Shown: positions 1-62,447 of the stretch, in pieces
How the letters are laid out: every line of letters begins with the position of its first letter
Numbering within the stretch: position 1 is the first letter of the stretch
Source: Bacillota bacterium
Lineage (GTDB): Bacteria > Bacillota > Clostridia > Peptostreptococcales > Anaerovoracaceae
Direction of reading: 5' to 3'
DNA: 64,000 bases
Assembly: GCA_017433375.1 (NCBI GenBank)
Contig: JAFRHG010000014.1
Span: 80,716-144,715, forward strand
Made by a program: the position numbers and the translations under genes
The notes under the pieces: generated by a model
Databases searched by the model: none
What the model was told of the DNA's origin: nothing
The model's input: only the letters and a program-made list of their open reading frames with translations

Positions 1-1898
1 TGCGGCAGAACGAGGCCCTGCGGGCGAAGATGAACCAGATCCTGAATTCTGCCGGGAACCAGAACCTGCTGCAGGACGCCATCGTGACCATCCGCAACGG
101 CCGGTACGTGGTGCCCGTCAAGCAGGAGCACCGGGCCAGCGTGCCCGGCATCATCCATGACCAGAGCGGCTCCGGGGCGACCCTGTTCATCGAGCCCCAG
201 GCCATCGTCAACATGAACAACGAGCTGCGCCAGCTGCAGCTGGACGAGCAGGCGGAGATCGACCGGATCCTGCGGGAGTTTTCCGAAGCGGTGGCGGAGC
301 TGCATCATGATCTGGACAACAACCAGAAGCTCCTGGTGCTTCTGGATACCATAATGGCCAAGGGAAGGCTTTCCGTGGCCATGGACGGAGAGGAGCCGGA
401 GATCGCCGAAGGCGGCGTGCTGGATCTGCAGGCGGCGGTGCACCCGCTGCTTCCCCGGGACAAGGCGGTGCCGGGGCACATCCGCATCGGCGAGGACTAC
501 CGGACCCTGGTGGTGACCGGACCCAACACGGGCGGCAAGACCGTCACCCTGAAGACGGCGGGACTGCTGACCCTGATGGCTCAGGCGGGCCTCCACATTC
601 CGGCGGCAGCCGGCAGCCGGATCCCCGTATTCCGCCAGGTGTTCGCCGATATCGGCGATGAGCAGAGCATCGAGCAGAGCCTGTCCACCTTTTCCTCCCA
701 CATGTCCAACATCGTGGAGATCGTCCGGGAAGCGGACGGGGAGAGCCTGGTCCTGCTGGATGAGCTGGGGGCGGGAACGGATCCCGCCGAGGGCGCGGCT
801 TTGGCCATCGCCATTCTGGAGGAACTGGAGCGGCGGGGGGCGTGTACCCTAGCCACCACCCACTATACGGAACTGAAGAAATACGCCATCGCCACGGAGG
901 GCGTGGAAAACGCCTCCATGGAATTTGACGTGAAGACCCTGCGGCCCACCTACCGGCTCACCATCGGCCTGCCGGGAAAATCCAACGCCTTTGAGATCGC
1001 CTCCCGTCTGGGGATCCCTGATGGGCTGACCCGGCGGGCGGGACAGCTTCTGGATGCCGGCGACGTTGCCTTTGATGACGTGATCGGCTCCCTGGAAGAG
1101 GAAAAGAAGCAGGCAGAGCGGCAGCGGGCGGAAGCCATGGCCATGGCCGACGAGATCCGCCGGGAGAAGGAAAAGCTGCAGGCGGACGCCCGCCGGCAGA
1201 AGGAGCGGCAGGAAAAGGAACTGGCTGAGGCCAGGGAAGAGGCACGGGAGATCGTCCGGGAGGCCAAGGAGGTTTCCGACGAGATCCGCCGGGAACTGAA
1301 GGAACTGTCCCGGCTGGACAGTCCCGCCGAGGCGAACCGCCGCCACGACGCCAACCGCAGGCGGCTGCGCCAGCTGGAGAAGAAGAACCGGCCGACGATA
1401 AAGAAAGAAGAAAACACGGCACCGGTGGACCCCGGCAAACTGAAGGTAGGGGACCGGGTCAAGGTGCTGACCATCGGACAGAACGGGGAGATCCTGGAGC
1501 TGCCCGACGAGCGGGGCGAGCTGATGGTGCAGGTGGGCATGATGAAAGTCAACGCCCATGTGGACGACATCATGCTCATCGACCAGCACAGGCCCGTATC
1601 CCGGCCTAAAGGGAGCGGCCACGGCAGTCTGTACCGCAAAAAAGCCCAGATGGTGTCCACTTCTGTGGATGTCCGGGGAAAAAACCTTGACGATGCCGTC
1701 ATGGATGTGGAAAAATATATAGATGACGCCTTTTTATCCGGCCTGCCGGAGGTGACCATCATTCACGGGCGCGGCGAGGGGATCCTCAGCAAGGGGATCC
1801 GGGCAAGGCTGCGGTCCCTGAAAAATGTGAAAGATTACCGCAGAGGCGGCTTTGACGAGGGCGGAGACGGGGTGACCGTCGTCCGGCTGAAGGTTTGA
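1..1898 (+). CDS. mutS2: MutS2 endonuclease/ATPase, 5'-truncated by window edge
   Basis: MutS2 is a MutS-family ATPase that acts on recombination intermediates and collided ribosomes; it is not the mismatch-repair MutS. The reading frame is open from base 3, so the true start lies upstream; about 631 of the usual roughly 790 residues are present. The ATPase Walker A GPNTGGKT lies near bases 518-541 and the Walker B region LLDELGAGTDP near 755-790. A Lys/Glu/Arg-rich coiled coil follows (about 1090-1330). The C-terminal Smr nuclease domain begins near base 1655, with VDVRGKNLDDA and the IIHGRGEG motif. It ends 16 bases before argS and may be cotranscribed with it. The family call is secure; only the N-terminus is unseen. 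Confidence 0.97.
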   Translation, partial: RQNEALRAKMNQILNSAGNQNLLQDAIVTIRNGRYVVPVKQEHRASVPGIIHDQSGSGATLFIEPQAIVNMNNELRQLQLDEQAEIDRILREFSEAVAELHHDLDNNQKLLVLLDTIMAKGRLSVAMDGEEPEIAEGGVLDLQAAVHPLLPRDKAVPGHIRIGEDYRTLVVTGPNTGGKTVTLKTAGLLTLMAQAGLHIPAAAGSRIPVFRQVFADIGDEQSIEQSLSTFSSHMSNIVEIVREADGESLVLLDELGAGTDPAEGAALAIAILEELERRGACTLATTHYTELKKYAIATEGVENASMEFDVKTLRPTYRLTIGLPGKSNAFEIASRLGIPDGLTRRAGQLLDAGDVAFDDVIGSLEEEKKQAERQRAEAMAMADEIRREKEKLQADARRQKERQEKELAEAREEAREIVREAKEVSDEIRRELKELSRLDSPAEANRRHDANRRRLRQLEKKNRPTIKKEENTAPVDPGKLKVGDRVKVLTIGQNGEILELPDERGELMVQVGMMKVNAHVDDIMLIDQHRPVSRPKGSGHGSLYRKKAQMVSTSVDVRGKNLDDAVMDVEKYIDDAFLSGLPEVTIIHGRGEGILSKGIRARLRSLKNVKDYRRGGFDEGGDGVTVVRLKV

Positions 1899-1914
1899 GC
1901 AAAGGAGTGACACG

Positions 1915-3627
1915 ATGATCAACTACAGAGAGAAAATTGCGGATGTCCTTACCCACCACATGGAGGGTATATCCTTTGAAGAGGTCCTGGACATGATCGA
2001 AAAACCGGCTGACCCGAAGATGGGCGACTACGCGCTGCCCTGCTTCAAGCTGGCCAGAGTCCTGCGCAAGGCGCCGCCTATGATCGCCAAAGGCATCGCC
2101 GAGAGCATCGAGGACGAGCACCTCTTCGAGAAGGTGGAGGCGGTAAATGCCTACGTCAACATGTTCGTCGACCGCAACGACTTCGCCCATGAGGTGGTCG
2201 CGGAGGCCATCGAGAAGGGCGACGACTTCGGCAGAAGCGATGTGGGCGCCCACCGCAAAGTCATCGTGGAGTACTCCTCCCCGAACATCGCCAAGCCTTT
2301 CCACATCGGCCACATCCGGAGCACGGTCATCGGCAGCTCCATCGCCAACATCTACGATTTCCTGGGCTATGACATCGTCCGGATCAACCATCTGGGCGAC
2401 TACGGCACCCAGTTCGGCAAGATGATCGTGGCCTACCGCCGGTGGGGCAACCGGGAGGATGTGGTGAGAGAGCCCATCAAGACCCTGCTGGAGTACTACA
2501 CCAGATTCCACAAAGAGGCGGAGAACGATCCGACCCTGGAGGATGAGGCCAGAGCGACCTTCACCAAGCTGGAGCACGGCGAGAAGGAAGAGATGGAACT
2601 GTGGCAGTGGTTCCGGGAGGAGTCCCTGAAGGAGTTCACCAGGGTGTATGACATGCTGGGGATTGCCTTTGATTCCTATAAGGGCGAGAGTTTCTACTCC
2701 GACAAGATGCCCCGGTTCGTGAAGGAACTGGAGGAGAAGGGCCTGCTGGAGGAGGACCAGGGCGCCAAGATCGTGCGATTGGACGAATACGACCTGCCGG
2801 TGGCGCTGATCACCAAGTCCGACGGATCCACCCTGTACATCACCCGGGATATCGCCGCCGCGGTCTACCGCAAGGAGACCTACGATTTTTACAAGAACAT
2901 CTACGTGGTGGCCTCCCAGCAGAACCTGCACTTCCAGCAGTGGATCCAGATTCTGGAAATGATGGGCTATCCCTGGGCCAGAGACTGCGTCCACGTGCCC
3001 TTCGGCCTGGTGAGCATGGAGGAAGGCGCCATGTCCACCCGTGAGGGAAGGGTCATCTTCCTGGAGGATGTGCTGAACCGGGCGGTGGAAAAGACCCGGG
3101 AAATCATCCGGGAAAAGAACGTCAACACGGAAAACATCGAAGAAACGGCCGCTGCGGTAGGAATCGGCGCCGTGATCTTCAATGAACTGTCGAATTACAG
3201 AATAAAGGATTATGTATTCTCCTGGGATCACGTGCTGAATTTCGAGGGCGAGACCGGTCCCTACGTCCAGTACACCCACGCCAGGGCCTGCAGCATCCTG
3301 CGCAACGCGGGAGAAGAGGTCGTTGCAAAGGCAATGAAGGGCTTTGACTCCACCTACATCACCGGAGACAGCGCCCATGAGCTGGAGAGCCTCCTTTACG
3401 AGTTCCCCGACGTGGTTCACGAGGCCGGCGACAAGTACGAGCCCTCTATCGTGACCCGCCACATCGTGGATATCGCCCAGGCCTACAACCGGTTCTACCA
3501 CGACGAGCACATCCTGACCGACAACGAGGATGAGAAGGTGGCCAAGGTGGCCCTGGTCATGGCGGCGAAGAACGCCATCAAGAACGGCCTGGCTCTCCTG
3601 GGCATGGAGGCGCCGGAGAGGATGTAG
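1915..3627 (+). CDS. argS: Arginyl-tRNA synthetase
   Basis: Charges tRNA-Arg with arginine in the cytoplasm. The 570-residue length is normal for a class I ArgRS. The N-terminal Add1-type domain precedes the HIGH signature, seen as PFHIGHIRS near residue 130. The KMSKS-equivalent loop appears as AMSTREGRV near residue 370, the degenerate form usual in this enzyme. The C-terminal third, with YVQYTHARACSILR and a helical tail, is the DALR anticodon-binding domain. The ATG is preceded by AAAGGAGTGA, a strong ribosome-binding site. No T-box leader is visible; the gene follows mutS2 directly and probably shares its transcript. Confidence 0.97.
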   Translation: MINYREKIADVLTHHMEGISFEEVLDMIEKPADPKMGDYALPCFKLARVLRKAPPMIAKGIAESIEDEHLFEKVEAVNAYVNMFVDRNDFAHEVVAEAIEKGDDFGRSDVGAHRKVIVEYSSPNIAKPFHIGHIRSTVIGSSIANIYDFLGYDIVRINHLGDYGTQFGKMIVAYRRWGNREDVVREPIKTLLEYYTRFHKEAENDPTLEDEARATFTKLEHGEKEEMELWQWFREESLKEFTRVYDMLGIAFDSYKGESFYSDKMPRFVKELEEKGLLEEDQGAKIVRLDEYDLPVALITKSDGSTLYITRDIAAAVYRKETYDFYKNIYVVASQQNLHFQQWIQILEMMGYPWARDCVHVPFGLVSMEEGAMSTREGRVIFLEDVLNRAVEKTREIIREKNVNTENIEETAAAVGIGAVIFNELSNYRIKDYVFSWDHVLNFEGETGPYVQYTHARACSILRNAGEEVVAKAMKGFDSTYITGDSAHELESLLYEFPDVVHEAGDKYEPSIVTRHIVDIAQAYNRFYHDEHILTDNEDEKVAKVALVMAAKNAIKNGLALLGMEAPERM

Positions 3628-6094: not shown

Positions 6095-6440
6095 CAGTCG
6101 ACCGCTGCGAATAAACCGGCAAATCATCTCCGGCAGGCGCAATGATCCCCGATGAATACACACCGATACAAAGGGAGTATCGCATCAGAGCTGATGTGCC
6201 ACTCCTTTTTCATGCTCATTTACCGGTTGCGCCTGATGCTGATGCTTCTGTCGATCTCATTTATATGCCTTTTGGCGAAAATCCATATGTCTTTGGAATA
6301 CGAAGAATCCACATAAGGCATATAGACGATTACATGCCGTCTCTCAGACAGCATTATGTGGGTGGCTGAGGGGGGAGACCTTGCGCATATCGTCCCGTTG
6401 CCTTTGCCGGTTCAAGCCCCTCCTCATGCGAATGAACGAG
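6095..6440. other. Non-coding stretch after TPR gene, with terminator and inverted repeat
   Basis: No gene is supported between the TPR gene and repeat copy A. It contains a terminator (6170-6210), a 10-bp inverted repeat TATATGCCTT/AAGGCATATA with arms near 6261-6270 and 6312-6321, and one TTGCCTTT octamer at 6398. A 75-codon open frame (6142-6369) crosses the terminator hairpin, has no ribosome-binding site and resembles nothing I know, so I do not call it a gene. Confidence 0.5.
6170..6210 (+). terminator. Intrinsic terminator after TPR gene
   Basis: A hairpin pairs AAAGGGAGT and CGCATCAG with CTGATGTG and ACTCCTTTTT, with small internal loops and a terminal loop of only AG, and ends in a run of T. 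It ends the TPR gene transcript. Confidence 0.7.
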
Positions 6441-6695
6441 TGGTGAATGAAAGAGTTGATTTATCGTCCACATTCACCAGATTGTCGATTTCCCCCTCTG
6501 AAAAGGCCCATTCAAGCCTCTCTCGTGAATAAAAAGGCAATCCCTCAGCATCCATACACCACTTTCGCCGAAACTGGTGTATAGATTCCATTTCACGAGG
6601 GAAAGATTCACGAAATGGAAATAAATGTAATTATTTGAGCGTTCAAAAGAGGTTTTGGTGAATGAAACCCATATTCAAAGCGGATCTATACACCA
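6441..6695 (+). repeat. Dispersed intergenic element, copy A
   Basis: First of three copies of an unnamed element of about 255 bp. Arms seen: TGGTGAATG (6441) with CATTCACCA (6471); CGTGAAT (6524) with ATTCACG (6606); ATACACCA (6554) with TGGTGTAT (6575), nested inside the previous pair; and TTTTGGTGAAT (6653) with TACACCA (6689). Copy A also has TTCCATTTC/GAAATGGAA (6586 and 6612), not clearly kept in B or C. The first and last bases are themselves inverted (TGGTG and CACCA). An AAAGGCAA octamer lies at 6533. It sits between the TPR terminator and the LexA-box promoter of the polymerase gene. It could be a structured RNA, a nucleoprotein site array or a MITE-like element. Confidence 0.8.
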
Positions 6696-6796: not shown

Positions 6797-8386
6797 ATGA
6801 ACCGAACAGAGGAGAAACAGAGAACCTATATCGCCATCGACCTGAAGTCCTTCTACGCCTCGGTGGAATGCCGGGAGCGGGAGCTGGACCCCATGACGAC
6901 CAATCTGGTGGTCGCCGATCTTTCGCGTACGGAAAAAACCATCTGCCTGGCGGTGACGCCCAGCCTGAAGAGTTACGGCATCAGCGGCCGGGCCAGGCTG
7001 TTCGAGGTGGTGCAGCGGGTGAAGGAGATCAACGCCCGGCGGCAGAGCGCCAACGGGGGAAGACCTTTTACGGGCGAGTCATGGGACGCGGAGGAGCTGG
7101 CTGCGGATCCGGGCCTGAAGCTTTCCTATGTGGTCGCGCCGCCCAGGATGCGCCTTTACATGGAGTACAGCACCCGGATCTATCAGATTTATCTGCAGTA
7201 TGTCGCTGCGGAGGACATCCACGTCTATTCCATCGATGAGGTGTTCATCGACGTGACCAACTACCTGAAGACCTACGGCATGACGGCGCGGCAGCTGGTG
7301 ATGACCATGATCAAGGATGTCCTGGAGCAGACGGGAATCACGGCGACGGCGGGCATCGGAACGAATCTGTACCTGGCCAAGATCGCCATGGATATCGATG
7401 CCAAGCACAATCCGCCCGACGAGAACGGCGACCGGATGTCGGAGCTGGATGAGATGTCCTACCGGAAACGGCTCTGGACCCACGAACCCATCACCGACTT
7501 CTGGCGGATCGGCAGAGGATACGCCCGGAAACTGGCCGCCCACGGCATGTACACCATGGGGGATGTGGCTCGGTGCTCCCTGGGCGGACCGGCGGACTTC
7601 TATAACGAGGAGCTGCTCTACCGGCTGTTCGGCGTCAACGCGGAACTGCTCATCGACCACGCCTGGGGCATCGAGCCATGCACCATGCAGGACATCCGCG
7701 CCTACCGGCCCCAGACCAACAGCCTCAGTTCCGGGCAGGTACTGAAGGAGCCGTACTCCAGTGCAAAGGCAAGGCTGGTCGTGCGGGAAATGACGGAGCT
7801 GATGGTTTTGGATCTGGTCAGCAAGGGAGTGACCACGGATCAGATGGTGCTGACCGTGAACTACGATATCGAGAATCTGACGGACCCCGAGCGGCGCAAA
7901 AGATACCGGGGCCCGGTGACCACGGACTACTACGGACGGAAGGTTCCCAAACACGCCCACGGAACCGCCAATCTTCCCCGGCGTACTTCCTCCACAAAGA
8001 TAATCTGCGACGAAGTCATGGCGCTCTATGACCGGATCATCGATCCGGATCTCCTCGTCCGCCGCCTCACCATCGCCGCCTGCCGGTTGGAATCGGGGGT
8101 CAGACCCGCGGAGGAAACAGCAGCGGCAGCCGGCGCGTCCGGGGCAGCCGCCGGCCCAGCAGCCGACGCCCAGGGGGAACAGCTGGATATGTTCACCGAT
8201 TACGAGGAGAGAGACCGGGAAGAGCAGCAGGAACAGGAGGCGCTGCAGAAAGAAAACCAGATGCAGAAGGCCATGATCGCCATCAAGGAAAAGTACGGCA
8301 AGAACGCCATCCTCACCGGAACCAATCTGGAGGAGGGGGCCACGGCCATGGAGCGGAACCGGCAGATCGGAGGGCACAGGGAGTGA
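6797..8386 (+). CDS. Y-family translesion DNA polymerase (ImpB/UmuC family)
   Basis: A 529-residue error-prone polymerase that copies past damaged bases. The N-terminal palm begins AIDLKSFYASVECRER, giving the first metal-binding Asp, the YAS steric gate area and a Glu. The SIDE motif carrying further catalytic acids appears as YSIDEVFIDV near residue 150. The thumb with helix-hairpin-helix follows (FWRIGRGYARKLAAHGMYTMGDVA), then the little-finger domain. After about residue 440 there is an Ala/Gly-rich linker and a charged tail. It resembles the UvrX/YqjW group of Gram-positive bacteria. The LexA box upstream and a YolD-like gene downstream fit an SOS operon. The ATG is preceded by GGAG; the stop TGA lies in a 27-bp tandem repeat. 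Confidence 0.93.
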   Translation: MNRTEEKQRTYIAIDLKSFYASVECRERELDPMTTNLVVADLSRTEKTICLAVTPSLKSYGISGRARLFEVVQRVKEINARRQSANGGRPFTGESWDAEELAADPGLKLSYVVAPPRMRLYMEYSTRIYQIYLQYVAAEDIHVYSIDEVFIDVTNYLKTYGMTARQLVMTMIKDVLEQTGITATAGIGTNLYLAKIAMDIDAKHNPPDENGDRMSELDEMSYRKRLWTHEPITDFWRIGRGYARKLAAHGMYTMGDVARCSLGGPADFYNEELLYRLFGVNAELLIDHAWGIEPCTMQDIRAYRPQTNSLSSGQVLKEPYSSAKARLVVREMTELMVLDLVSKGVTTDQMVLTVNYDIENLTDPERRKRYRGPVTTDYYGRKVPKHAHGTANLPRRTSSTKIICDEVMALYDRIIDPDLLVRRLTIAACRLESGVRPAEETAAAAGASGAAAGPAADAQGEQLDMFTDYEERDREEQQEQEALQKENQMQKAMIAIKEKYGKNAILTGTNLEEGATAMERNRQIGGHRE

Positions 8387-8732: not shown

Positions 8733-10000
8733 TCGGCGCCGGCTTCCGTTGCCTTTGCGTCGGCATCTTCCGCCTCCGCCTTCTTCGGCTTGCCGAAGTC
8801 CTCGAGCCACTTCACCATGAAGGGGATCCGCAGGGGACCTTCCGTGAGGATGTCGTAGAGTTTGACCCAGAAGGGCGCGCACAGGGACACGCCGGTCAGC
8901 AGGGCGCTGCCGTAGACCATGGGGAAGAAGATCCAGAGGTTCTTCGGGCACTTGCCCACCAGCGGATCCAGTACCCCGCAGTTCCACAGCCAGATGGCGC
9001 CGGCGATGGAGAGCACGGTCACGACGATGGAAACCGTCCAGTTGTTGTGCTTCCGGTGGGCCAGGGAGATCAGGGAGAACCAGGCGACGATCAGCGCGGA
9101 GATGGCGCCCAGGTAGAGACCCTTGATCTTGATGATGTGCCGCAGGCCGAGATGGAAGATGTAGATGGGCATGGTGTTGGTTCCCACATAGCAGAGAAAA
9201 TTCCGTGTCGAGGGAAGGATGTTGACCATCAGGGTGATCCATCCGCAGGCCAGACAGAAGACCAGACCCCGGTACCAGAAGTCATCCCAGAGGGAGACGC
9301 CGAGGGCCGAGGCGCTGTCTTTGAGCAGGAACCAGGAGAGCCGCGGTCCGGTAAAGACCAGCCAGATGGAGCAGCCTACCAGGGCAGCCGCCAGCAGGAC
9401 GATGATCACCGGATGGCGCTTCAGGGTACGCACCTTGTCCAGGGTTTCCTTGGAGCAGTAGTAGCCGATCAGGAAAAACGGGAAGTAGGAAAAGACCCTT
9501 CCCAGAGCCAGATAATCGTTAAAAGGCAACGCTCCCGCGGCGAACATCATGATGATGCTCATGGGCAGGGCCCACTGGAACTTGATGATGTCCCGCAGGA
9601 AGAAGCGGTAGAGGAACAGGGCGAACAGGAACCACAGGGCGAAAGGCGGCGTCAGGTAAGAGAACCAGTGGCCGATGCCCGTGTCGAAGCCGTAGCCCGC
9701 GATCATGGTAATCGTGGTGAAGACCAGATAGGGCCAGAGGATGCTGCGGAACGCGGTATCGTGAGCCCGGTCAGGTTTTTTGGAAAAGTATCCGGACAGG
9801 AACATGAAGGCCTGCATGACGAATACGTTGATGGTGATGTACATGAAGCCGCAGAAGGATTCGTGCGCGAATCCGGGTGCGTACAGGGCCTGGTACCAGT
9901 TGGCCGAGGCCTTGGTGAAATGGGACACGGGAATCGACAGCATCAGAATACCGCGAAAAGTGTCGAACATGTAATCACGCTCTTTGATGATTTCTCCCAT
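8723..10000 (-). CDS. Acyltransferase 3 family membrane protein
   Basis: A 425-residue polytopic membrane protein. The N-terminus RDYMFDTFRGILMLSIPVSHF is the characteristic first helix of acyltransferase-3 proteins (fucose 4-O-acetylase or OafA-like), with the catalytic-type His in SHF. About ten hydrophobic segments follow, including VFVMQAFMFLSGYFSKKP, where SGYF is a typical family feature, and FALWFLFALFLYRFFL. These enzymes move acyl groups from cytoplasmic CoA donors to sugars or other envelope molecules; the substrate here is unknown. The C-terminal 35 residues are charged and Ala/Glu-rich. The ATG has GGAGGG upstream. It is transcribed divergently from the YjbR-like gene. Confidence 0.88.
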   Translation of the reverse strand: MGEIIKERDYMFDTFRGILMLSIPVSHFTKASANWYQALYAPGFAHESFCGFMYITINVFVMQAFMFLSGYFSKKPDRAHDTAFRSILWPYLVFTTITMIAGYGFDTGIGHWFSYLTPPFALWFLFALFLYRFFLRDIIKFQWALPMSIIMMFAAGALPFNDYLALGRVFSYFPFFLIGYYCSKETLDKVRTLKRHPVIIVLLAAALVGCSIWLVFTGPRLSWFLLKDSASALGVSLWDDFWYRGLVFCLACGWITLMVNILPSTRNFLCYVGTNTMPIYIFHLGLRHIIKIKGLYLGAISALIVAWFSLISLAHRKHNNWTVSIVVTVLSIAGAIWLWNCGVLDPLVGKCPKNLWIFFPMVYGSALLTGVSLCAPFWVKLYDILTEGPLRIPFMVKWLEDFGKPKKAEAEDADAKATEAGAEKK

Positions 10001-11296: not shown

Positions 11297-11671
11297 ATGT
11301 CCATGGCCTGGATTGCCTTTACCTGTGCCATATTTGCCCTTGCCGGGCTGCTGCTGGTAGCCTACATATCCGAGGACGATTTTGAGGGAGACTGGGTCTG
11401 CGCGGGAACCATGGTCGGCGACCGGTTCGCGCCCTATCCCGGCGGGTTCATCCACAGCGAGATCGTCATCGAAGATGACCGGGTTCAGTATTTTATCGCC
11501 GGGGAGCAGGTGAGCGCCACCTACCGGCGGCGGAAGATCCAGGTTGAGCTGGCGGCGCAGATCGTTATGGAGTATCGGCTTTCCATTGAGGAGGGCAGAC
11601 TGATCATGCAGGATCAGAACGGGACCCGGCTGGTCTATGAGCGGCTTCCCGAGGAGGCGGTTCCCCGGTAG
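11297..11671 (+). CDS. Small membrane-anchored protein of unknown function
   Basis: 124 residues. One hydrophobic segment (WIAFTCAIFALAGLLLVAYI, about residues 5-24) anchors the N-terminus; the rest is soluble and beta-rich in appearance, with EIVIEDDRVQYFIAGEQVSA. I recognise no family. It starts 3 bases after the YjbR-like stop, with GGAGG in the end of that gene, and is followed closely by a MerR regulator, so the three are probably one operon. Confidence 0.6.
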   Translation: MSMAWIAFTCAIFALAGLLLVAYISEDDFEGDWVCAGTMVGDRFAPYPGGFIHSEIVIEDDRVQYFIAGEQVSATYRRRKIQVELAAQIVMEYRLSIEEGRLIMQDQNGTRLVYERLPEEAVPR

Positions 11672-13788: not shown

Positions 13789-13856
13789 GGACAAAGGCAA
13801 TTCCGCGGGACGGATCGGAAATACAATTTTAATACAATAGAAAGGGTGCTGAGCGT

Positions 13857-33206: not shown

Positions 33207-33234
33207 GCAAAGGCAACGGAATACAGGAAAAACC

Positions 33235-42109: not shown

Positions 42110-42292
42110 CCGTCCGGGCGGCGTTGCTTTTGCCCCTGGGACGGCGTTGCTTTTGCGTCCGCGGCGAAATTGCAATTTTTTTCCAAAGGCAACTGGCACA
42201 TTAAAAAAGAAAACGACTGGCACTTTCGGTTGGGGATATGGTATAGTATCCTTTAGCCAAGGTGTTTTTCATTGTACGAAAGGAGCAAAATT
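42110..42292 (+). promoter_or_regulatory. Upstream region of the arc operon
   Basis: Holds a likely -10 TATAGT (42242-42247) with poor -35 TGGCAC 18 bp upstream. Two direct repeats are present: GGCGTTGCTTTTGC at about 42119 and 42143, and ACTGGCAC at 42192 and 42216. An AAAGGCAA octamer lies at 42185. No ArgR-type box was recognised. Regulation of the arc genes may act through these repeats. Confidence 0.45.
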
Positions 42293-43288: not shown

Positions 43289-43374
43289 CGGACCGTACGA
43301 AAGGAGTTCCATCAGCCCGCAGTACCCGCTGCGGCAACTCCGCTAGGTATTGCCTTTGCAGAAAGGAACATATT

Positions 43375-52599: not shown

Positions 52600-53187
52600 A
52601 TGAGAATCGTAACATCCGAACTGGAGCAGATCGCGGTCAAGCCGTCCCAGTACCCGCCGGGAGACCTGGCGGAGATTGCCTTTGCAGGAAGGTCCAACGT
52701 GGGGAAATCCTCCCTGCTGAATCTGCTGACCGGCCGCAAAAAGCTGGCCCATGTCAGCGGCAATCCGGGCAAGACCCGGACCATCAACTTCTACCGGATC
52801 AACGACGCTTTCCGGATCGTGGACCTGCCCGGCTACGGCTACGCCAAAGTGTCCAAGTCCCTTTCGGAGAGCTGGGGCGAGATGATGGAGACCTACCTGG
52901 AAGGGAGAGAGAACCTGCTGACCGTGGTGCAGCTGGTGGACATCCGCCACGCGCCCTCGGCCCAGGACGCGGCCATGCATGAGTACCTGCGCCACTACGG
53001 CCTTTCGGGCATCATCGCGGCCACCAAGGCGGACAAGGTGTCGCGGAACCAGCTGCCGAAGCAGATGAAGATGATCCGGCAGACCCTGAAGCTTTCGCCG
53101 GAGGAACAGATCTATCCCGTGTCGGCCCTGAAGAAGACCGGACACGGTGCGCTGCTGGACGCCATCGGCGCCCTGCTGGAGGAATAG
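52600..53187 (+). CDS. ysxC: Ribosome biogenesis GTPase YsxC/EngB
   Basis: 195 residues. GTPase needed for late 50S assembly. G1 is [19 protein letters not shown]2 TRTINFY, G3 [12 protein letters not shown] and G4 ATKADKVS; all are present. A TTGCCTTT octamer lies on the codons for IAF just before G1 (52676), using ATT and TTT where the gene otherwise prefers ATC and TTC. It follows lon closely. Confidence 0.97.
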
Positions 53188-54226: not shown

Positions 54227-57200
54227 GTGAGTGTCAATGGAAACTGGGGAGCCTGTCAATGGATGATCGCTGAAGACGGCCTGCTGACCATCAGCGGAGG
54301 AAAGGCGGAGAGCATCCCTTCGACCGGCATAGCGCCATGGTTTGATAACCGGGAGGATATCCGCGCCGTCCGTATCGACGGACAGGTGGCCTTTGACGAG
54401 GGGGAATCCCTGGGCTGCATGTTCAAGGACTGCGTCAACCTGGAGGAAGTGGATCTGGAGGATCTGGATACGGCGGGCATTATTTCCATGCATTCCTTCT
54501 TCGAAGGCTGCAGCAGCCTGACCGATGTGGCCGTCGGCGGACTGGACTTTTCCCGGGTGACGTCTCTGTCCGGCATGTTCAACAGCTGTGAGAACCTGAA
54601 GCAGGTCGACTTTTCCGGAGCAGACACCTCCAATCTGGTCAACATTCTGGGTATGTTCATGAACTGCCGGTCCCTGGAGGAGATCGACCTCTCACCCCTG
54701 AATACATCCAACACCGTGGATATGAGCTGGCTCTTCTGCGGCTGCGAGAACCTGAAGCAGGCGGACCTGTCCATGCTGGATACGAGCCGCGCCGTGGATA
54801 TGAGCTGCATGTTCCTGAACTGCACCTCCCTGGAGGAGGTCATCTTCGGGGGCGCCGACCTGTCCCAGGTCATGGATGCCTCCCGGATGTTCATGTACTG
54901 CGGCAAGCTGAAAAGCATTGACTTTTCCGAAACGGACAACAGCTCCATGGAGCATACGGATGATATGTTCTACGGCTGCGCCGGACTGCGGTCCCTGGCC
55001 ATGGGCGAGAAGTTCAGCCTGCTCGGCGGAGGCCGGGCGGCCATCCTTCTGCCCGAGGACAAAGCCGCGGAGAGCGGCCTGGACAGGGCCGCTGCGGATG
55101 CCGCGGACAGCTTCGGAGAAACCATTCAGGAAGACGGCGGCGAAGCCATGTCCGCCGATGAGATGAAGGAGTCCGAGTGGAGACGCTCCCGGGATGACGT
55201 GTACTACATCCCCGGTACCCGGTTTGTCCTGCACTACGACGGATCCGGCGCCGAGGGCGAGATGGAAGAGGTATGGCGGGTGGCCGGAGAGTCGGTGACC
55301 CTGGGCCTGCCGGCTTTTGACACGCCGAAGGGAAGGGTGTTCCGGGAGTGGAACACGAGAGCTTCCGGCATGGGCCGGACCTTCCAGCCGGGGGATGAGA
55401 TCACCCTCTACGGAGACAAAACCCTGTACGCCATCTGGGCGGGACGCCCGCAGATCCTGCAGGAGTACGAGATCCCGCAAATGGCCCACGATGAAGCCTT
55501 CCAGCTGCAGGCTCCCGACGTGGATCCCTGCTTCGGGGAGATCACCGCGTTGACCGCGCAGATCCAGCGGCCCGGACAGAAGCGCTGGGAGGACATCGCC
55601 GAAGGGCAGAGCGCGGAGAAAGCCGATGACGGCTCCCTGATCCGCTACAAGATCACCAACTACGTGGGCACGACCTGCACCGAGCCGGCGCCCCTTCACG
55701 TGGATAAGGCACATTACGACATGAGCGCCATGCATTGGGAACTGCCCGAGGACCTCACCTACAACGGAGAGGAAAAGAGCGTTCACCTGGAGGGACTGCC
55801 CGAGGGCATGGAGGTGAGCTACACCGGACAGAGCGCCGTGAATGTGGGCAGCTATGTCACCACGGCGAAGCTGACCGGCGATGAGGAGAACTACTATCCC
55901 CCCGAACAGCCCCAGCCCCTTACCTGGTCCATCGGACGGGGACGCTACGACATGAAGGACATCGGATGGTCCTACATGGAGGCCTTCACCTATGACGGCC
56001 AGTCCAAGAGCATCCGCCTCGACGGGCTTCCGGAGGGAACGACCGCTTACTACGACGGCGCCGACGCTGTAGATGTGGGAACCTACATCGCCACCGCCGG
56101 GCTGGATTATGATATCGACAACTACGAACGGCCGGAGGGGATCCGTCCCTGCACCTGGGAGATCCGTCAGACGACCCACGACATGAGCAACGTGTCCTGG
56201 GGCGACCAGTCGGTCTTCGTCTATGACGGCGGGGAGAAGAAGGTGGAACTGATCGGGCTTCCCGAAGGCGTCTCGGCGCGCTACACGGGCAATCAGGCAA
56301 CGGCCGCGGGACAGTATACGGCCCGGGCGGCTTTCGTGGTGGATGATCCGAAGAACTACATGATCCCCGAGCCCATCTCCTTCGACTGGGAGATCCGCAA
56401 GGCGGACCATGACATGTCCCGGATCGCCTGGTCCGAGGCCCACTTCGTCTACGACGGGCAGGAGAAGGAAATGACCCTGGACGGCGTTCCCGAGGGCGTG
56501 ACCGTCGCCTACGAGGGTACAAAGGCAACGGCAGCCGGCAATTACACGGCCAGGGCGGAATTCCTCGTGGATGATCTCCACAACTATAATCCCCTGTCGC
56601 CGGTGACCTGCAGCTGGTGCATCGACAAGGCGGTGGTCGATCTTTCCGCCACCCGCTGGAACTACAGCAGCCCCTACATCTATAACGGCAGCGTGAAGGA
56701 GGTGGGGCTGAAGAATGTGCCCGAGACCATCAGCGTCCGCCTGGAGGACAACCAGGCGGTGGAAGCCGGAACCTACGAGGCGAAGGCCTTCATTACATAC
56801 GACGCGGAAAACTATGAGGAACCCGTCATCGAGCCCTGCCGCTGGGAGATCCAGAGAGCGGTTCCCAAACTGGACGGCATCCAGTGGAACTACGGCGAGG
56901 CCTTCGTCTACGACGGACAGGAGCACGGCATCGAACTGGTGAACGTGCCGGAGACCTTCACCGTGCGCTATGAGGACAACCGGGCGACGACCGCCGGCAG
57001 TTACACCGCGAAGGCGTTCCTCCATCCCGTGGATGAACAGAACTACCGGGATCCTCTGCCCCTGGAGTGCCGCTGGGAGATCCAGAAGGCCCTCTTCGAT
57101 ATCTCCGGCATTCACTGGAACGCGGAGAAGAAGCGCACCTATGACGGCAGCGGACAGTCGGTGGCCATCACCGACCTTCCCGAAGGCATCACCGCGTCCT

Positions 57201-59236
57201 ACACGGGCAACGCGGCGACCGCCGCCGGCAGCTACACGGCCAAAGCCGTCTTCGAGGTGGCGGACAAGACCAACTTCCGGGCGCCGGATCCCATGGAAGT
57301 CGAATGGTCCATCGGCACCAGCGATCTGGACCTGTCCGGACTCAGCTGGGACTATGAAGAACCCTTCGTCTACAATGGCCAGGTGCAGGGCATCAGCCTG
57401 AAGGGCGTGCCTGAGGACATCGTGGTGCGCTACGAGGACGCCTCCGCCATGGAGGCGGGCGAGTACGTTGCCCGGGCCGAACTGATCGTGCCGGAGGGCA
57501 GCAACTACCATAATACGAAGACCCTGGGCCAGCTGTGGAAGATCGAGAAGGCGGACATCGACGTGAGCGGCGTCTTCTGGGAGGATCCCGGCAGGCTGGT
57601 TTACGACGGCACCATGAAGGAAGTCCGCCTCAGCGGACTGCCCGCATCGGTGAACGCCGAATACGAAGGAAACCGGCAGACGGACGCCGGCGAGTACGAG
57701 GCCTCCGTCAGGCTGCATCCCGTTGATCCGAAGAACCACAGGGAACCCAGCGTGGAGGGTACCGCCTGGTCGATCGAAAAAGCCCAGATCGAACTGGACG
57801 AGGTGGAGTGGACGGACAGCACCGACTACGTCTATGACGGCACGGTGCACCGGGTGATCATCCGGGATCTGCCCGAGACCCTGGAAGCTTTCTACGACAG
57901 CAACGAGGCGATAGATGCCGGCCAGTATGTGGCCACCGCGTCCTTCATGCCCATCGATGAGAAAAACTACGTGACTCCCTCGCCCCGGCAGCACGCCTGG
58001 GCCATCGCCAGAGCCGACATCGATATGTCCGACGTCCGGTGGGGCCTGCAGAAGGTCTTCACCTACAACGGACAGCCCCACCGCATCGAGCTGGAGAACC
58101 TGCCCATCAACCTGGATGTTTCCTACCAGGGCAACGAGGCGGTGGACGCCGGCCAGTACATCGCCGCGGCGGAGCTGACGCCGACGGATCCGGACAACTA
58201 CAACGTACCGGCAGTGGATCCCCAGACCTGGGAGATCAGCAAGGTGGACATCGACATGTCCGGCGTATCCTGGGTCTCCGCCGAGCGTCTGGTCTATGAC
58301 GGAAACCTGAAGGTCATCGGCCTGACCGGGCTGCCCGAAGATGTGGACGTGGAATACGAAAACAACGTGGCGACAGACGCGGGAACCTATCACGCTTCCG
58401 CGGTGCTTTCCCTGGACAGCGCCAACTACCGGGCACCGGAGATCAAGGGCTGCACCTGGACCATTGAAAAGGCAACCCCGTCCATTGAGGGCGTCGCCTG
58501 GAACTACCTGATCGATTTCGTCTACGACGGTTACGAGAAGAGGGTGGAACTGACCGAACTGCCCCCGGGCATGACGGCGGTCTACCAGGGGAACGCGGCC
58601 ATCGAGGCCGGAACCTACCGGGCCGAAGTGAAACTCATCATGGACGATCAGATGAACTACGAGGCGCCGGTGATCGAACCCCTGGAGTGGACGATCCAGA
58701 AGAGGGACTACGATATGAGCACGGCGGCCTGGACAGGAGAGGAAGGTCTGGTCTACGACGGCACGAAGAAGGAAGTGGTCATGACAGGCCTGGAAGAGGG
58801 ACTGGATCCCATCTACGAGGGCAATACGGGAGTGGATGCCGGCGAATACACGGCGACCGTGCGCTTCCTCTATGACGAGGACAACTACAATCCGCCGCCG
58901 CAGATCGAGCATATCTGGCGGATCGAGAAGGCGCCCCTGGATATTTCCGGCGCCCGCTGGGATTATGACGGACCGCTGCGCGCGGGACGCAAACCCAGAA
59001 CCGTCACCCTCGCCCTGAAGGATGGAAGCCACAAGGGCGGCGGACTCTTCCGCCGGTCCAGAGAGGAAAACTACGCGGGACTGCCGGAGGGAACGACAGT
59101 CCGTTACGAAGGCAACTCGGCCAAGGACCCGGGAATCTATGAAGCGGTAGCTTATCTGACCATTCCCGAGCAGCCGAATCACGAGGTGAAGGAACCCCTT
59201 CGCCTGACCTGGGAGATTACTGATGGAAAGGGATAA
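54227..59236 (+). CDS. Giant repeat protein: 26-residue surface repeats, InlB-like domain, 15 YDG/MBG-like repeats
   Basis: About 1669 residues from a GTG with GGGGAGGA 6 bases upstream; an in-frame ATG at 54164 has no such site and sits at the terminator. Residues about 50-265 are BspA/DUF285-type repeats (MFKDCVNLEEVDLEDLDT, MFNSCENLKQVDFSGADTS). About 345-405 is an InlB/Listeria-Bacteroides-type repeat (FREWNTRASGMG, LYAIWAG). From about 494 to the end run fifteen units of about 76 residues with the frame W..., YDG or YNG, LPEG, Y.GN.A..AG.Y.A, NY..P, W.I.KA. Neither start gives a signal peptide, and no sorting motif or membrane helix is visible, odd for such domains. The stop overlaps cls by 14 bases. 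Confidence 0.85.
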   Translation: MSVNGNWGACQWMIAEDGLLTISGGKAESIPSTGIAPWFDNREDIRAVRIDGQVAFDEGESLGCMFKDCVNLEEVDLEDLDTAGIISMHSFFEGCSSLTDVAVGGLDFSRVTSLSGMFNSCENLKQVDFSGADTSNLVNILGMFMNCRSLEEIDLSPLNTSNTVDMSWLFCGCENLKQADLSMLDTSRAVDMSCMFLNCTSLEEVIFGGADLSQVMDASRMFMYCGKLKSIDFSETDNSSMEHTDDMFYGCAGLRSLAMGEKFSLLGGGRAAILLPEDKAAESGLDRAAADAADSFGETIQEDGGEAMSADEMKESEWRRSRDDVYYIPGTRFVLHYDGSGAEGEMEEVWRVAGESVTLGLPAFDTPKGRVFREWNTRASGMGRTFQPGDEITLYGDKTLYAIWAGRPQILQEYEIPQMAHDEAFQLQAPDVDPCFGEITALTAQIQRPGQKRWEDIAEGQSAEKADDGSLIRYKITNYVGTTCTEPAPLHVDKAHYDMSAMHWELPEDLTYNGEEKSVHLEGLPEGMEVSYTGQSAVNVGSYVTTAKLTGDEENYYPPEQPQPLTWSIGRGRYDMKDIGWSYMEAFTYDGQSKSIRLDGLPEGTTAYYDGADAVDVGTYIATAGLDYDIDNYERPEGIRPCTWEIRQTTHDMSNVSWGDQSVFVYDGGEKKVELIGLPEGVSARYTGNQATAAGQYTARAAFVVDDPKNYMIPEPISFDWEIRKADHDMSRIAWSEAHFVYDGQEKEMTLDGVPEGVTVAYEGTKATAAGNYTARAEFLVDDLHNYNPLSPVTCSWCIDKAVVDLSATRWNYSSPYIYNGSVKEVGLKNVPETISVRLEDNQAVEAGTYEAKAFITYDAENYEEPVIEPCRWEIQRAVPKLDGIQWNYGEAFVYDGQEHGIELVNVPETFTVRYEDNRATTAGSYTAKAFLHPVDEQNYRDPLPLECRWEIQKALFDISGIHWNAEKKRTYDGSGQSVAITDLPEGITASYTGNAATAAGSYTAKAVFEVADKTNFRAPDPMEVEWSIGTSDLDLSGLSWDYEEPFVYNGQVQGISLKGVPEDIVVRYEDASAMEAGEYVARAELIVPEGSNYHNTKTLGQLWKIEKADIDVSGVFWEDPGRLVYDGTMKEVRLSGLPASVNAEYEGNRQTDAGEYEASVRLHPVDPKNHREPSVEGTAWSIEKAQIELDEVEWTDSTDYVYDGTVHRVIIRDLPETLEAFYDSNEAIDAGQYVATASFMPIDEKNYVTPSPRQHAWAIARADIDMSDVRWGLQKVFTYNGQPHRIELENLPINLDVSYQGNEAVDAGQYIAAAELTPTDPDNYNVPAVDPQTWEISKVDIDMSGVSWVSAERLVYDGNLKVIGLTGLPEDVDVEYENNVATDAGTYHASAVLSLDSANYRAPEIKGCTWTIEKATPSIEGVAWNYLIDFVYDGYEKRVELTELPPGMTAVYQGNAAIEAGTYRAEVKLIMDDQMNYEAPVIEPLEWTIQKRDYDMSTAAWTGEEGLVYDGTKKEVVMTGLEEGLDPIYEGNTGVDAGEYTATVRFLYDEDNYNPPPQIEHIWRIEKAPLDISGARWDYDGPLRAGRKPRTVTLALKDGSHKGGGLFRRSREENYAGLPEGTTVRYEGNSAKDPGIYEAVAYLTIPEQPNHEVKEPLRLTWEITDGKG

Positions 59237-60797
59237 GCAATCCTTTTTCTCCCGCATCAGCGGCATCACCCGTCTGGTTTTCGGACGGACAGGGTTGTTT
59301 TTGCTGCTCCTGGTCGTGCAGGTGGTCGTCCTCTTCGGCGGGTTCTTCCTGCTGGGTGAGAAGATCATCGTCTTCAACTACGTGGCCGGTTTCGTGGCCA
59401 TGATGATCCTCATCTACGTGGTCGGCTCCCGCAGGGACGCCAATATGAAGATGACCTGGATCATCCTGGTCCTGTCGGTGCCCATCTTCGGCGTGGTGCT
59501 CTTCATCTATACCCGCATCCAGCCGGGAACACAGGCCCGCGCGGAGCGGCTGGCCCAGCTCATCGAGGAGCAGCGTCCCTATCTGGCGCCTCAGCGGGAG
59601 ACCATCGAGAAGGAACTGGTGGACGCCCGTCAGGAGTACGGCATCTTCAAATACATCTACGAGGGAGGGGATTATCCCTCCTACCGGGACGCGGCGGTGA
59701 AGTATTACCCCCTGGGTGAGGATAAATTCGAAGACATGCTTCTGCAGCTGCGCCGGGCGAGGAAGTTCATCTTCCTCGAGTACTTCATCATCGAAGAAGG
59801 GGAGATGTGGAACGCCATCCTTTCCATCCTGAAGGAAAAGGCCGCGGAGGGCGTGGAGGTCCGGCTCATGTACGACGGGACCTGCAACCTGTCCCTGCTG
59901 CCCAGGGACTTCCCCCGCAGGATGGAGGAACTGGGCATACAGTGCAAAGTGTTTTCCCCCATGATTCCCTTCCTGTCCACGCACCAGAACAACCGGGATC
60001 ACCGGAAAATCTGTGTGATCGACGGAAGGGTTGCCTTTACGGGAGGCGTCAACCTGGCCGATGAGTACATCAACCGCAAGGAGCGCTTCGGCCACTGGAA
60101 GGATACGGCCATCATGGTGCAGGGCGCGGCGGTGGACAGCTTCACCCTCATGTTCCTGCAGATGTGGCACCTGGAGGACAACGGGCGGGAGGACTACCTG
60201 AAGTATATCGTCGCCAGCGACGAGCAGATCGATGAGGATATGAAGCGGGGCGGATTCATTGCGCCCTACGGCGACAGCCCCCTGGATCAGGAAGAAGTCG
60301 GGGAGAAGATCTACACGGACATCGTCAGCAAGGCGGAAAGCCACGTCCACATCATGACACCCTACCTGATCCTCAGCGAGACCATGGTCCACACCCTGAT
60401 CTTCGCTGCGCAGCGGGGCATCGATGTGAAGATCATCCTGCCCCATATCCCGGACAAGGCCTACGCCTACTGGCTGGCCAGGACCCACTACATGGAACTG
60501 ATCACCGGCGGCGTGAAGATCTACGAGTACACCCCGGGATTCGTCCACGCCAAGGTGTTCTGCAGCGACAATATCCGCGGCGTGGTGGGGACGATCAACC
60601 TGGATTACCGCAGCCTGTACCTGCACTTCGAGTGCGCGGCGTACATTTACGATAACCCGGTGATCCAGGATATCGAAGAGGACTTCAACCAGACCCTGAA
60701 AAAGTGCGAACGGATCACGGTGGAAAACTGCCGCCGGTTCAGCTGGCCGAGCAGGATCGCCGGACGTGCGCTGAAGATAGTGGCCCCGCTGATGTAG
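59223..60797 (+). CDS. cls: Cardiolipin synthase
   Basis: 524 residues. Joins two phosphatidylglycerol molecules into cardiolipin at the membrane. Two N-terminal helices are LFLLLLVVQVVVLFGGFFL and a second ending LVLSVPIFGVVLFIY. Two phospholipase D HKD motifs are visible: NNRDHRKICVIDGRVAFTGG and FVHAKVFCSDNIRGVVGTINLDYRS. The gene begins inside the 3' end of the giant repeat gene in another frame, so translation is probably coupled. A TTGCCTTT octamer lies within the first HKD motif. Confidence 0.95.
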   Translation: MERDKQSFFSRISGITRLVFGRTGLFLLLLVVQVVVLFGGFFLLGEKIIVFNYVAGFVAMMILIYVVGSRRDANMKMTWIILVLSVPIFGVVLFIYTRIQPGTQARAERLAQLIEEQRPYLAPQRETIEKELVDARQEYGIFKYIYEGGDYPSYRDAAVKYYPLGEDKFEDMLLQLRRARKFIFLEYFIIEEGEMWNAILSILKEKAAEGVEVRLMYDGTCNLSLLPRDFPRRMEELGIQCKVFSPMIPFLSTHQNNRDHRKICVIDGRVAFTGGVNLADEYINRKERFGHWKDTAIMVQGAAVDSFTLMFLQMWHLEDNGREDYLKYIVASDEQIDEDMKRGGFIAPYGDSPLDQEEVGEKIYTDIVSKAESHVHIMTPYLILSETMVHTLIFAAQRGIDVKIILPHIPDKAYAYWLARTHYMELITGGVKIYEYTPGFVHAKVFCSDNIRGVVGTINLDYRSLYLHFECAAYIYDNPVIQDIEEDFNQTLKKCERITVENCRRFSWPSRIAGRALKIVAPLM

Positions 60798-60818
60798 GGG
60801 GCGGACAGAAAGAAGAAT

Positions 60819-62447
60819 ATGACTCAGAAATCACTTGTGAAGGGGGCTGCCGTACTGGCGGCCGCCGGAATCATTGTCAAAGTAATCGGAGCGGCCTTCC
60901 GGATCCTGCTGGCCAGTTTCATCACGGACCAGGGCATGGCCTACTACACGCCGGCCTATGCCATCTACGCCGTGCTGCTGGTCATCTCCACCTCGGGCAT
61001 TCCCATCGCCATCTCCCGGATGGTGTCGGAGCGCTACGCCATCGGACGGTTTGACGAAGCGGACCGGGTGTTTCACATCTCCCGCTATCTGATGATCTCC
61101 CTGGGCGCGGCCGGATTCATCGCTCTGTTTTTCTTTGCCCGTCCCATCGCGGACGCGCTGCACCTGTCGGGTTCGGCCCTGGCCATGCAGGCAACGGCGC
61201 CGGCGCTTCTGATCGTGCCCATCATGTCCTCCTACCGGGGATATTTCCAGGGCCAGCAGCTCATGGCGCCCACGGCGATCTCCCAGACGGTGGAGCAGGT
61301 GTTCCGGGTGGGCTTCGGCCTGCTTCTGGCGGTGGTCCTCATGAGAGGGACCCTCTTTGCGGAGGACTACACGGATCTGCAGCGGGGCGCTGCCGGCGGA
61401 TGCTTCGGCGCTTCGGCTGGCGCCATCGGCGGACTGGCGGTGATGGTATTCATCTACGCCCTCGCCCGCAAAGGCCTCAAGGCCCGGGTCAAAAAGAGCC
61501 GGGGAGGGGAGAGGGAGACCGCCGGGTCTATCCTGAAGAGCATTCTGATCATCGCCGTACCCATCACCGTCGGCGCCATGCTCATGCCCCTGGTCAATCT
61601 GGTCGACGCCTCCGTGGTCAACATCCGTCTGGAGGACGCGGGCTTTGACGATTCCACGGCCAAGGCTCTCTACGGTCAGCTGACCGGATTCTGCGAGCCC
61701 ATCGTGGCCCTGCCTCAGGTCCTCATGTCCGCCATCGTCATGAGCATCGTGCCCATGGTGGCGGCGGCCAACAAGGTGGGCGACACGGAGCGTCTGCACG
61801 AGACCATTTCCCTCGGCCTTCGCATGGCATCCATCGTTGCCTTTCCCTGTGCCATCGGCCTGGTGATCCTGGCCAAGCCGTCCCTGACCATGCTCTTCTA
61901 CACCCAGAAGGAGGCGGCGGCCAACGCGACGCCCTGTCTGCAGGTGCTCGCCGTGGGATTCATCATCCTGGCCCAGATCACCATCATGACCGGCATCCTG
62001 CAGGGTGTGGGCCGGCAGGTGTTCCCGGTGATCAACCTGTTCATCGGCCTGGTGGTCAAAGTGGCGGTGACCTGGATCCTGGTGGGTACCCAGGCAGTCA
62101 ACGTGGTGGGCGCGCCCCTGGGCACCCTGGCGGCTTACCTCATCGCCGGCGGCCTGGACATGTATTGCCTTTGCCGCTTTACGGGCGCGAGGCTGCCCGT
62201 CCGGCTCCTGCTGACCAAGCCCCTGGCTTCCGCCCTGGTTATGGGCGTTGTCGTGTGGGGCGTATATAAAGGAATCTTTGCCCTGGCCGGCAGCAACACC
62301 CTGGCCACGCTCATCGCCATCGCCGTCGGCGCCCTCGTCTACGGAGTGATGATCGTCAAGACCCGGACCATCCTCCGGGACGAGATGATGGAGATTTCCT
62401 TCGGCCGCCGGATCGCGGTGATCTGTGACCGGCTGCGGCTGTGGTAG
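60819..62447 (+). CDS. MOP-superfamily flippase (SpoVB/MurJ/YtgP-like)
   Basis: 542 residues with about fourteen hydrophobic segments. The N-terminus LVKGAAVLAAAGIIVKVIGAAFRILLASFI and YAIYAVLLVISTSGIPIAISRMVSE are typical of the SpoVB/YtgP branch of polysaccharide flippases. It may flip lipid II or another undecaprenyl-linked sugar. Whether it is the cell's main lipid II flippase cannot be told. It follows cls by 21 bases and may share a transcript with cls and the giant gene. Confidence 0.87.
   Translation: MTQKSLVKGAAVLAAAGIIVKVIGAAFRILLASFITDQGMAYYTPAYAIYAVLLVISTSGIPIAISRMVSERYAIGRFDEADRVFHISRYLMISLGAAGFIALFFFARPIADALHLSGSALAMQATAPALLIVPIMSSYRGYFQGQQLMAPTAISQTVEQVFRVGFGLLLAVVLMRGTLFAEDYTDLQRGAAGGCFGASAGAIGGLAVMVFIYALARKGLKARVKKSRGGERETAGSILKSILIIAVPITVGAMLMPLVNLVDASVVNIRLEDAGFDDSTAKALYGQLTGFCEPIVALPQVLMSAIVMSIVPMVAAANKVGDTERLHETISLGLRMASIVAFPCAIGLVILAKPSLTMLFYTQKEAAANATPCLQVLAVGFIILAQITIMTGILQGVGRQVFPVINLFIGLVVKVAVTWILVGTQAVNVVGAPLGTLAAYLIAGGLDMYCLCRFTGARLPVRLLLTKPLASALVMGVVVWGVYKGIFALAGSNTLATLIAIAVGALVYGVMIVKTRTILRDEMMEISFGRRIAVICDRLRLW

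What the first reader, a model, noticed from the sequence alone, without database searches (positions are those of the whole stretch)
1066..62172. Octamer TTGCCTTT/AAAGGCAA is enriched about 20-30 fold across the whole window
By hand I count 20 TTGCCTTT on the + strand (1066, 2663, 6398, 8749, 10650, 11313, 14000, 14084, 20557, 24949, 27365, 31669, 31885, 36778, 43350, 48974, 52676, 60031, 61837, 62165) and 21 AAAGGCAA (3327, 6533, 7765, 9522, 11973, 13793, 17548, 17715, 22660, 28279, 33209, 34454, 37476, 42085, 42185, 45055, 47037, 48538, 51962, 56521, 58468). For this base composition about 1-2 are expected. The next base is G in 31 of 41, and the base before is never T, so the word extends to VTTGCCTTTG. 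Internal control: of the TGCCTTT or AAAGGCA 7-mers I found, only about five are not part of the octamer. Orientation is balanced although nearly all genes are on one strand, which argues against a polar Chi or KOPS-type signal and favours an uptake-sequence-like word, a HIP1-like motif or a modification-linked site. I know of no such word in Clostridia.
Basis: seen in the sequence. Interest (0 to 1): 0.93.

Follow-up and report, generated by a model that had tools for sequence, protein, structure and literature searches.

The report
Clade-wide DNA uptake-type word in Clostridia
A group of uncultured Clostridia carries one short DNA word up to about a thousand times per genome, in both directions and with species-level spelling variants, which looks like a 'self' label for DNA uptake of a kind so far known only in two families of Gram-negative bacteria; uptake itself has not been tested.

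Summary
TTGCCTTT occurs 42 times in the window (20 +, 22 -; shuffles give 1.6) and 1132 times (564/568) in the 1.95-Mb genome. In a 423-kb sample it is the most over-represented octamer (253 vs 12.4). Codon-preserving shuffles give 14-16 genic copies against 207 observed, and intergenic DNA carries it too. It shows no leading-strand excess.

The word is a clade trait: of 49 genomes in the genus, 26 are strong, 5 weak, 18 without. ComEC and AddB trees put every bearer they contain on one side. No genome outside the genus reached the strong level among 349 family and 393 order genomes. The base before TGCCTTTG differs by lineage: T here, C/T, or C only.

Best reading: an uptake-sequence-like word spread by biased uptake and recombination; ComEC and DprA are widespread. 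A non-polar Chi-like or modification-linked word is not excluded, and no receptor was found. A 2025 paper calls Neisseriaceae and Pasteurellaceae the only families known to do this, so this would be a first in Bacillota.

The parts
1066..1073 (+). TTGCCTTT copy
2663..2670 (+). TTGCCTTT copy
3327..3334 (-). TTGCCTTT copy
6398..6405 (+). TTGCCTTT copy
6533..6540 (-). TTGCCTTT copy
7765..7772 (-). TTGCCTTT copy
8749..8756 (+). TTGCCTTT copy
9522..9529 (-). TTGCCTTT copy
10650..10657 (+). TTGCCTTT copy
11313..11320 (+). TTGCCTTT copy
11973..11980 (-). TTGCCTTT copy
13793..13800 (-). TTGCCTTT copy
14000..14007 (+). TTGCCTTT copy
14084..14091 (+). TTGCCTTT copy
17548..17555 (-). TTGCCTTT copy
17715..17722 (-). 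TTGCCTTT copy
18238..18245 (-).
20557..20564 (+). TTGCCTTT copy
22660..22667 (-). TTGCCTTT copy
24949..24956 (+). TTGCCTTT copy
27365..27372 (+). TTGCCTTT copy
28279..28286 (-). TTGCCTTT copy
31669..31676 (+). TTGCCTTT copy
31885..31892 (+). TTGCCTTT copy
33209..33216 (-). TTGCCTTT copy
34454..34461 (-). TTGCCTTT copy
36778..36785 (+). TTGCCTTT copy
37476..37483 (-). TTGCCTTT copy
42085..42092 (-). TTGCCTTT copy
42185..42192 (-). TTGCCTTT copy
43350..43357 (+). TTGCCTTT copy
45055..45062 (-). TTGCCTTT copy; changed in the nearest relative G177
47037..47044 (-). TTGCCTTT copy; changed in G177
48538..48545 (-). TTGCCTTT copy; identical in G177
48974..48981 (+). TTGCCTTT copy; identical in G177
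51962..51969 (-). TTGCCTTT copy; identical in G177
52676..52683 (+). TTGCCTTT copy; changed in G177
56521..56528 (-). TTGCCTTT copy
58468..58475 (-). TTGCCTTT copy
60031..60038 (+). TTGCCTTT copy
61837..61844 (+). TTGCCTTT copy
62165..62172 (+). TTGCCTTT copy

Best explanation
RTTGCCTTTGCA (core TGCCTTTG) is an uptake-sequence-like word. A surface DNA receptor of these naturally competent Clostridia prefers fragments that carry the word in either orientation; the fragments are pulled in, pass ComEC as single strand, are handed on by DprA/RecA and recombine. Because donor alleles with the word are taken up more often than alleles without it, the word accumulates wherever the sequence tolerates it and marks the DNA of the same lineage. 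Shown: the word, its density, its independence of codons and strand, its restriction to one clade, its dialects, and the presence of competence genes. Inferred: competence, the receptor, biased uptake and the molecular drive.
For: Genome-wide and balanced: 564/568 copies. Top octamer, 20.5-fold over order-2 Markov; 9-mer TTGCCTTTG 61-fold (170 vs 2.8); flanks uninformative beyond about 12 bp, so not a transposon remnant. Genic copies 207 vs 13.6 (synonymous) or 15.6 (junction-dinucleotide-preserving), 30 shuffles each, in all six frame/orientation classes; 0.70/kb intergenic vs 0.57/kb coding. Spacing as random (CV 0.95 vs 0.994, sd 0.060). Clade trait: 26 strong, 5 weak, 18 without of 49; ComEC tree: 11 genomes, all without, split from 29 (24 strong, 3 weak, 2 without; 100/99); AddB tree: 12 without split from 28 (22 strong, 5 weak, 1 without; SH-aLRT 100). 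Dialects before TGCCTTTG: T 0.92/0.84/0.78 (this genome/G177/G186), C 0.40 with T 0.34-0.42 (two pools, n=85 and 57), C 18 of 18 (G179, G185, G187/G191); G179 has 29 TTGCCTTTG but 441 TGCCTTTGC. One tolerated variant (TTGCTTTT, 7.2-fold; also enriched in G150 and G178). Sites turn over: 7 of 17 shared with G177 at 82% identity (background octamer identity 27.5%). ComEC in 40 of 49 (24 of 26 strong), DprA in 45 of 49 (23 of 26 strong).
Against: No uptake or transformation data; the organisms are uncultured as far as the calls show. No receptor: the compact GspF/pilin-like/PilT-type locus (C7:4150-7913) occurs in bearers and non-bearers, and its version in G163/G165/G176 (bearers) is nearer the non-bearers' than this genome's (GspF 24% vs 67-70% identity), so it does not track the word. 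A PilT-type ATPase of 350-401 aa was found in 16 of 26 strong, 2 of 5 weak and 10 of 18 without (my reading). ComEA above cut-off is absent from this genome and G177, two of the strongest bearers (22 of 26 strong have it). No AT-rich flanks as in the Haemophilus USS (recalled). The family named for this kind of word is known only in Gram-negatives.
Confidence: 0.67

Rival explanations
1. A Chi-like word: it is recognised by the AddAB helicase-nuclease and protects or directs repair of broken chromosomes.
For: AddB matches in 47 of 49 genomes, bearers included, though none above the curated cut-off; Chi words are over-represented octamers and can differ between lineages (PMC8022716, passages).
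Against: No leading-strand excess: 112/141 here, 196/241 pooled, p=0.035 towards lagging, 7e-41 against a 75% leading share (75% is recalled; PMC8022716 says E. [quoted passage not shown] Non-bearers have AddB too. Adjacent sites are not preferentially on one strand (94 same, 139 opposite here; 77/59 in relatives).
Confidence: 0.14
2. A modification- or defence-linked word (orphan methyltransferase site or self-marker), HIP1-like in role.
For: HIP1 shows that a hyper-abundant octamer can be tied to methyltransferases (PMC4390886, passages). Not tested further here.
Against: HIP1 is palindromic, this word is not; restriction sites are usually avoided, not enriched (established knowledge). No methyltransferase survey was made.
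Confidence: 0.08
3. A binding site of an abundant chromosome-organising or DNA-binding protein unrelated to uptake.
For: Genome-wide spread and a sharp core could fit any sequence-specific protein.
Against: Copies sit in all reading frames, turn over between close relatives and show no regional or strand pattern, which suits a word whose individual copies do not matter.
Confidence: 0.07
4. By-product of codon, codon-pair or amino-acid usage.
For: Commonest frames encode ordinary strings (V/I-A-F-A; A-K-A-T).
Against: 13- to 15-fold above codon-preserving shuffles, all six classes, and as dense between genes.
Confidence: 0.01

Closest known systems
DNA uptake sequence (DUS) of Neisseriaceae
   Same: Short non-palindromic word, about a thousand or more copies, both strands, dialects that follow the family tree, and relatives in the family without any word (PMC3630211, passages).
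   Different: Unrelated sequence and phylum. The ComP receptor was not looked for by name and no receptor was found. Only 3 inverted pairs under 60 bp among 6 close pairs, so no sign of the paired-terminator habit recalled for Neisseria.
Uptake signal sequence (USS) of Pasteurellaceae
   Same: Copy number and density of the same order (one per 1.7 kb here; the USS figure is recalled), mostly inside genes, near-random spacing, explained by molecular drive (PMC7811141, passages).
   Different: Unrelated sequence; no AT-rich flanking segments seen.
Chi sites
   Same: Over-represented octamer with a possible reader (AddAB) in the genome.
   Different: Not polar; restricted to one clade although AddB is present on both sides.
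HIP1 of cyanobacteria
   Same: Extreme over-representation of one octamer across a lineage.
   Different: HIP1 (GCGATCGC) is palindromic and tied to methyltransferases; this word is not palindromic.

Membership tests
Uptake sequence (DUS/USS kind) | Short word strongly over-represented genome-wide beyond codon usage | tested here: met
Uptake sequence (DUS/USS kind) | No strand polarity, near-random spacing | tested here: met
   mild lagging excess and, in this genome only, more alternation than expected
Uptake sequence (DUS/USS kind) | Clade trait with dialects around a fixed inner core | tested here: met
Uptake sequence (DUS/USS kind) | Transformation machinery present | tested here: inconclusive
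   ComEC 24 of 26 and DprA 23 of 26 strong bearers, ComEA 22 of 26; this genome lacks ComEA above cut-off; non-bearers have the genes too
Uptake sequence (DUS/USS kind) | Surface receptor (such as a minor pilin) that binds the word | tested here: inconclusive
   pilin-like genes found, none tracks the word
Uptake sequence (DUS/USS kind) | DNA with the word is taken up preferentially | not testable with these tools
   needs a cultured, competent member
Chi site | Polarised along the leading strand | tested here: not met
Chi site | Recognised by RecBCD/AddAB | not testable with these tools
   AddB present below curated cut-off in 47 of 49
HIP1 | Palindromic word | tested here: not met
   sequence itself
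HIP1 | Cognate DNA methyltransferases | not tested
   no methyltransferase search was made

The most novel reading that the evidence does not exclude
The first uptake-sequence system in Bacillota: a third, independent origin of word-guided, self-preferring natural transformation, with at least three dialects in one clade of uncultured Clostridia, read by a still unknown receptor of a monoderm-type cell.
Probability: 0.6. Interest if true: 0.93.

Novelty: new variant of a known kind. Interest (0 to 1): 0.86.

Why it matters
Why some bacteria take up only their own DNA is an old question resting on two Gram-negative families. An independent case in Clostridia, with sister species that lack the word and close relatives that spell it differently, would allow the receptor to be found by comparison and would show that self-preferring transformation also evolves in Bacillota. 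It would also give a practical handle (tagging donor DNA with the word) for lineages that nobody can yet manipulate.

Tried and rejected
Codon explanation: rejected by two shuffles. Repeat-family or transposon remnant: rejected, no conserved flank beyond about 12 bp. KOPS/Chi polarity: not seen. Free TTGC half-sites at other spacings: the word reads TTGC-CT-TTGC; TTGC-NN-TTGC is 162 of which CT 109 and TT 28, while other spacings give 1 to 29, so only the N2 spacing stands out; no further use was made of it. Different words in non-bearers: none stood out in small samples of G189, G155 and G171 (48-80 kb each); the other 15 non-bearers were not checked for other words. Receptor by presence/absence: failed. 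T4aP operon (C3:11756-20000) as the uptake pilus of the clade: PilB-type ATPase was found in only 4 of 49 genomes, two of them non-bearers. Tree root and 'single origin' rest on midpoint rooting of two single-gene trees.

Weak points of the counts: the strong/weak/none bands (100 and 45 copies per Mb of the commoner of the two 9-mers) are mine and use rounded genome sizes; six family genomes outside the genus fall in the weak band (G265 about 71, G147 and G018 about 63, G313 56, G044 55, G295 50 per Mb, my division). The reversed-word control is poor in GC-poor genomes: G170 (50 vs 2), G161 (47 vs 8) and G068 (27 vs 4) look enriched by ratio at low density. The motif-poor stretches (10 gaps over 5 kb) are about as many as random spacing predicts, and their genes (ribosomal proteins, adhesins, transposase) were named from the printed N-termini by recall.
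Full report
Observation. The window lies in contig 3 of a 38-contig, 1,953,975-bp genome (89% complete), which holds 1132 copies, 564 forward and 568 reverse, against 134 of the reversed word, one per 1.7 kb.

The word. In that sample TTGCCTTT is the most over-represented octamer under order-2 and order-3 Markov models (253 vs 12.4 and 12.1); TTGCCTTTG is 170 vs 2.8; TTGCCTTTGC 109 vs 0.7. The base before is G or A in 79%, the next two are mostly G and C; nothing is conserved further out. Intergenic copies alone (43) give the same extended form, roughly G-N-R-TTGCCTTT-K-Y-A. Of the 24 one-base variants, TTGCTTTT stands out (59 vs 8.2), followed by TTGCCGTT (3.5-fold), TTGACTTT (3.2-fold) and TTGCCTTC (2.5-fold).

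Not codons, not polar. A simple ORF-based gene caller (313 genes, 86% coding; not a curated annotation) puts 207 copies in genes, 43 between genes and 3 across borders. Synonymous shuffles give mean 13.6 (max 19 of 30 shuffles) and junction-preserving shuffles mean 15.6 (max 25). All six frame/orientation classes are filled (10 to 70 copies each), with the three protein-friendly ones commonest. By GC-skew sign 112 copies lie on the leading and 141 on the lagging strand; spacing is as random (CV 0.95). Pooled with relatives: 196/241.

Distribution. A family sample of 148 genomes with TTGCCTTT showed this genome far above the rest. Within the genus, 49 genomes were counted with TTGCCTTTG and TGCCTTTGC: 26 carry at least 100 per Mb of one of them, 5 carry 45-99, 18 less. 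In 349 family genomes of 92 genera and 393 order genomes of 158 genera (24 of them of this genus) no genome outside the genus reached 100 per Mb; six family genomes lie between 50 and 71 per Mb. Among 80 named loci fetched with ClpX, the best ClpX match, uncultured Clostridiales bacterium RUG13296 (72% identity), is also the densest in the word (7 TGCCTTTG and 5 TTGCCTTT, overlapping counts, in 12.2 kb, control 0). That places the window in Clostridia; no finer name was obtained.

History. A ComEC tree of 40 genomes separates 11, all without the word, from 29 (24 strong, 3 weak, 2 without: G160, G168) with support 100/99. An AddB tree of 40 genomes separates 12 without from 28 (22 strong, 5 weak, 1 without: G160), SH-aLRT 100. 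Both are midpoint-rooted single-gene trees. ComEC identity to this genome's protein ranges from 37 to 66%, so the word has been kept over a long time. Single copies are not kept: in 28.8 kb aligned with the nearest relative G177 (82% identity), 7 of 17 copies of this genome are identical there, and 7 of 9 of G177's are identical here, against 27.5% for all octamers.

Dialects. The base before TGCCTTTG is T in this genome, G177 and G186 (0.92, 0.84, 0.78), C or T about equally in G150/G178 and in eight other bearers pooled, and C in 18 of 18 copies seen in G179, G185 and G187/G191 (small samples for the last group). Whole-genome counts agree: G179 29 TTGCCTTTG and 441 TGCCTTTGC, G185 29 and 276. 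T and C dialects both fall in one subclade of the ComEC tree, together with G184 of the mixed type.

Machinery. ComEC: 40 of 49 genomes; DprA: 45 of 49; ComEA above cut-off: 43 of 49, but not this genome or G177. This genome has a type IV pilus operon at C3:11756-20000 (PilB and PilM confirmed by Pfam; PilT; PilC, PilD, PilN, PilO assigned by order and similarity, recalled), shared with G177 and, more distantly, G151. A compact locus at C7:3154-7913 encodes a transglutaminase-like lipoprotein, a GspF protein, four small membrane proteins (one DUF4860, one with the invariant Glu-Leu of a pilin-like N-terminus in 9 of 9 aligned sequences) and a PilT-type ATPase. It is found in bearers and non-bearers and does not follow the dialect. 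So competence is plausible, and the receptor is unknown.

Mechanism. The pattern matches what is described for uptake words: abundant, codon-independent, non-polar, scarce in constrained or newly acquired DNA (PMC7811141, passages; here only anecdotal), with dialects congruent with the tree and relatives without a word (PMC3630211, passages). The preferred explanation is biased uptake plus recombination. A Chi-like role is the main rival: AddB is present (47 of 49, all below the curated cut-off), but the polarity used to recognise Chi (PMC8022716, passages) is absent.

Novelty. [quoted passage not shown] Searches for an earlier report in Clostridia or Gram-positives listed none by title or abstract start; the listed papers were not read in full, and the library lacks most subscription papers.

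Noticed in passing
54164-59236 +: 1690-aa protein with a PARCEL-repeat surface-protein match (TIGR02167, E 1.2e-16).
   Followed up: partly
L091:11756-20000 and L092:1-16633 (contig C3): Type IV pilus operon followed by a very long open frame (over 4,500 aa across the two pieces) and two N-methyl-type pilins, one 799 aa long; PilB-type ATPase found in 4 of 49 genomes of the genus.
   Followed up: partly
L097:3154-7913 (contig C7): Compact locus: transglutaminase-like lipoprotein, GspF, four small pilin-like or membrane proteins including DUF4860, PilT-type ATPase; two divergent versions in the genus that disagree with the ComEC tree.
   Followed up: partly
G000 and G177: Both lack a ComEA match above cut-off although 43 of 49 genomes of the genus have one.
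   Followed up: no
whole 423-kb sample of this genome: Neighbouring copies of the word lie in opposite orientation more often than not (139 vs 94, p 0.004); not reproduced in relatives (59 vs 77).
   Followed up: partly
window, other words: CAGTTCCT (24), TCGATGAG (20) and ACTTCACC (15) are also over-represented in the window by order-2 Markov, about 9-fold, but are not near the top in the larger sample; mostly outside the PARCEL gene.
   Followed up: partly
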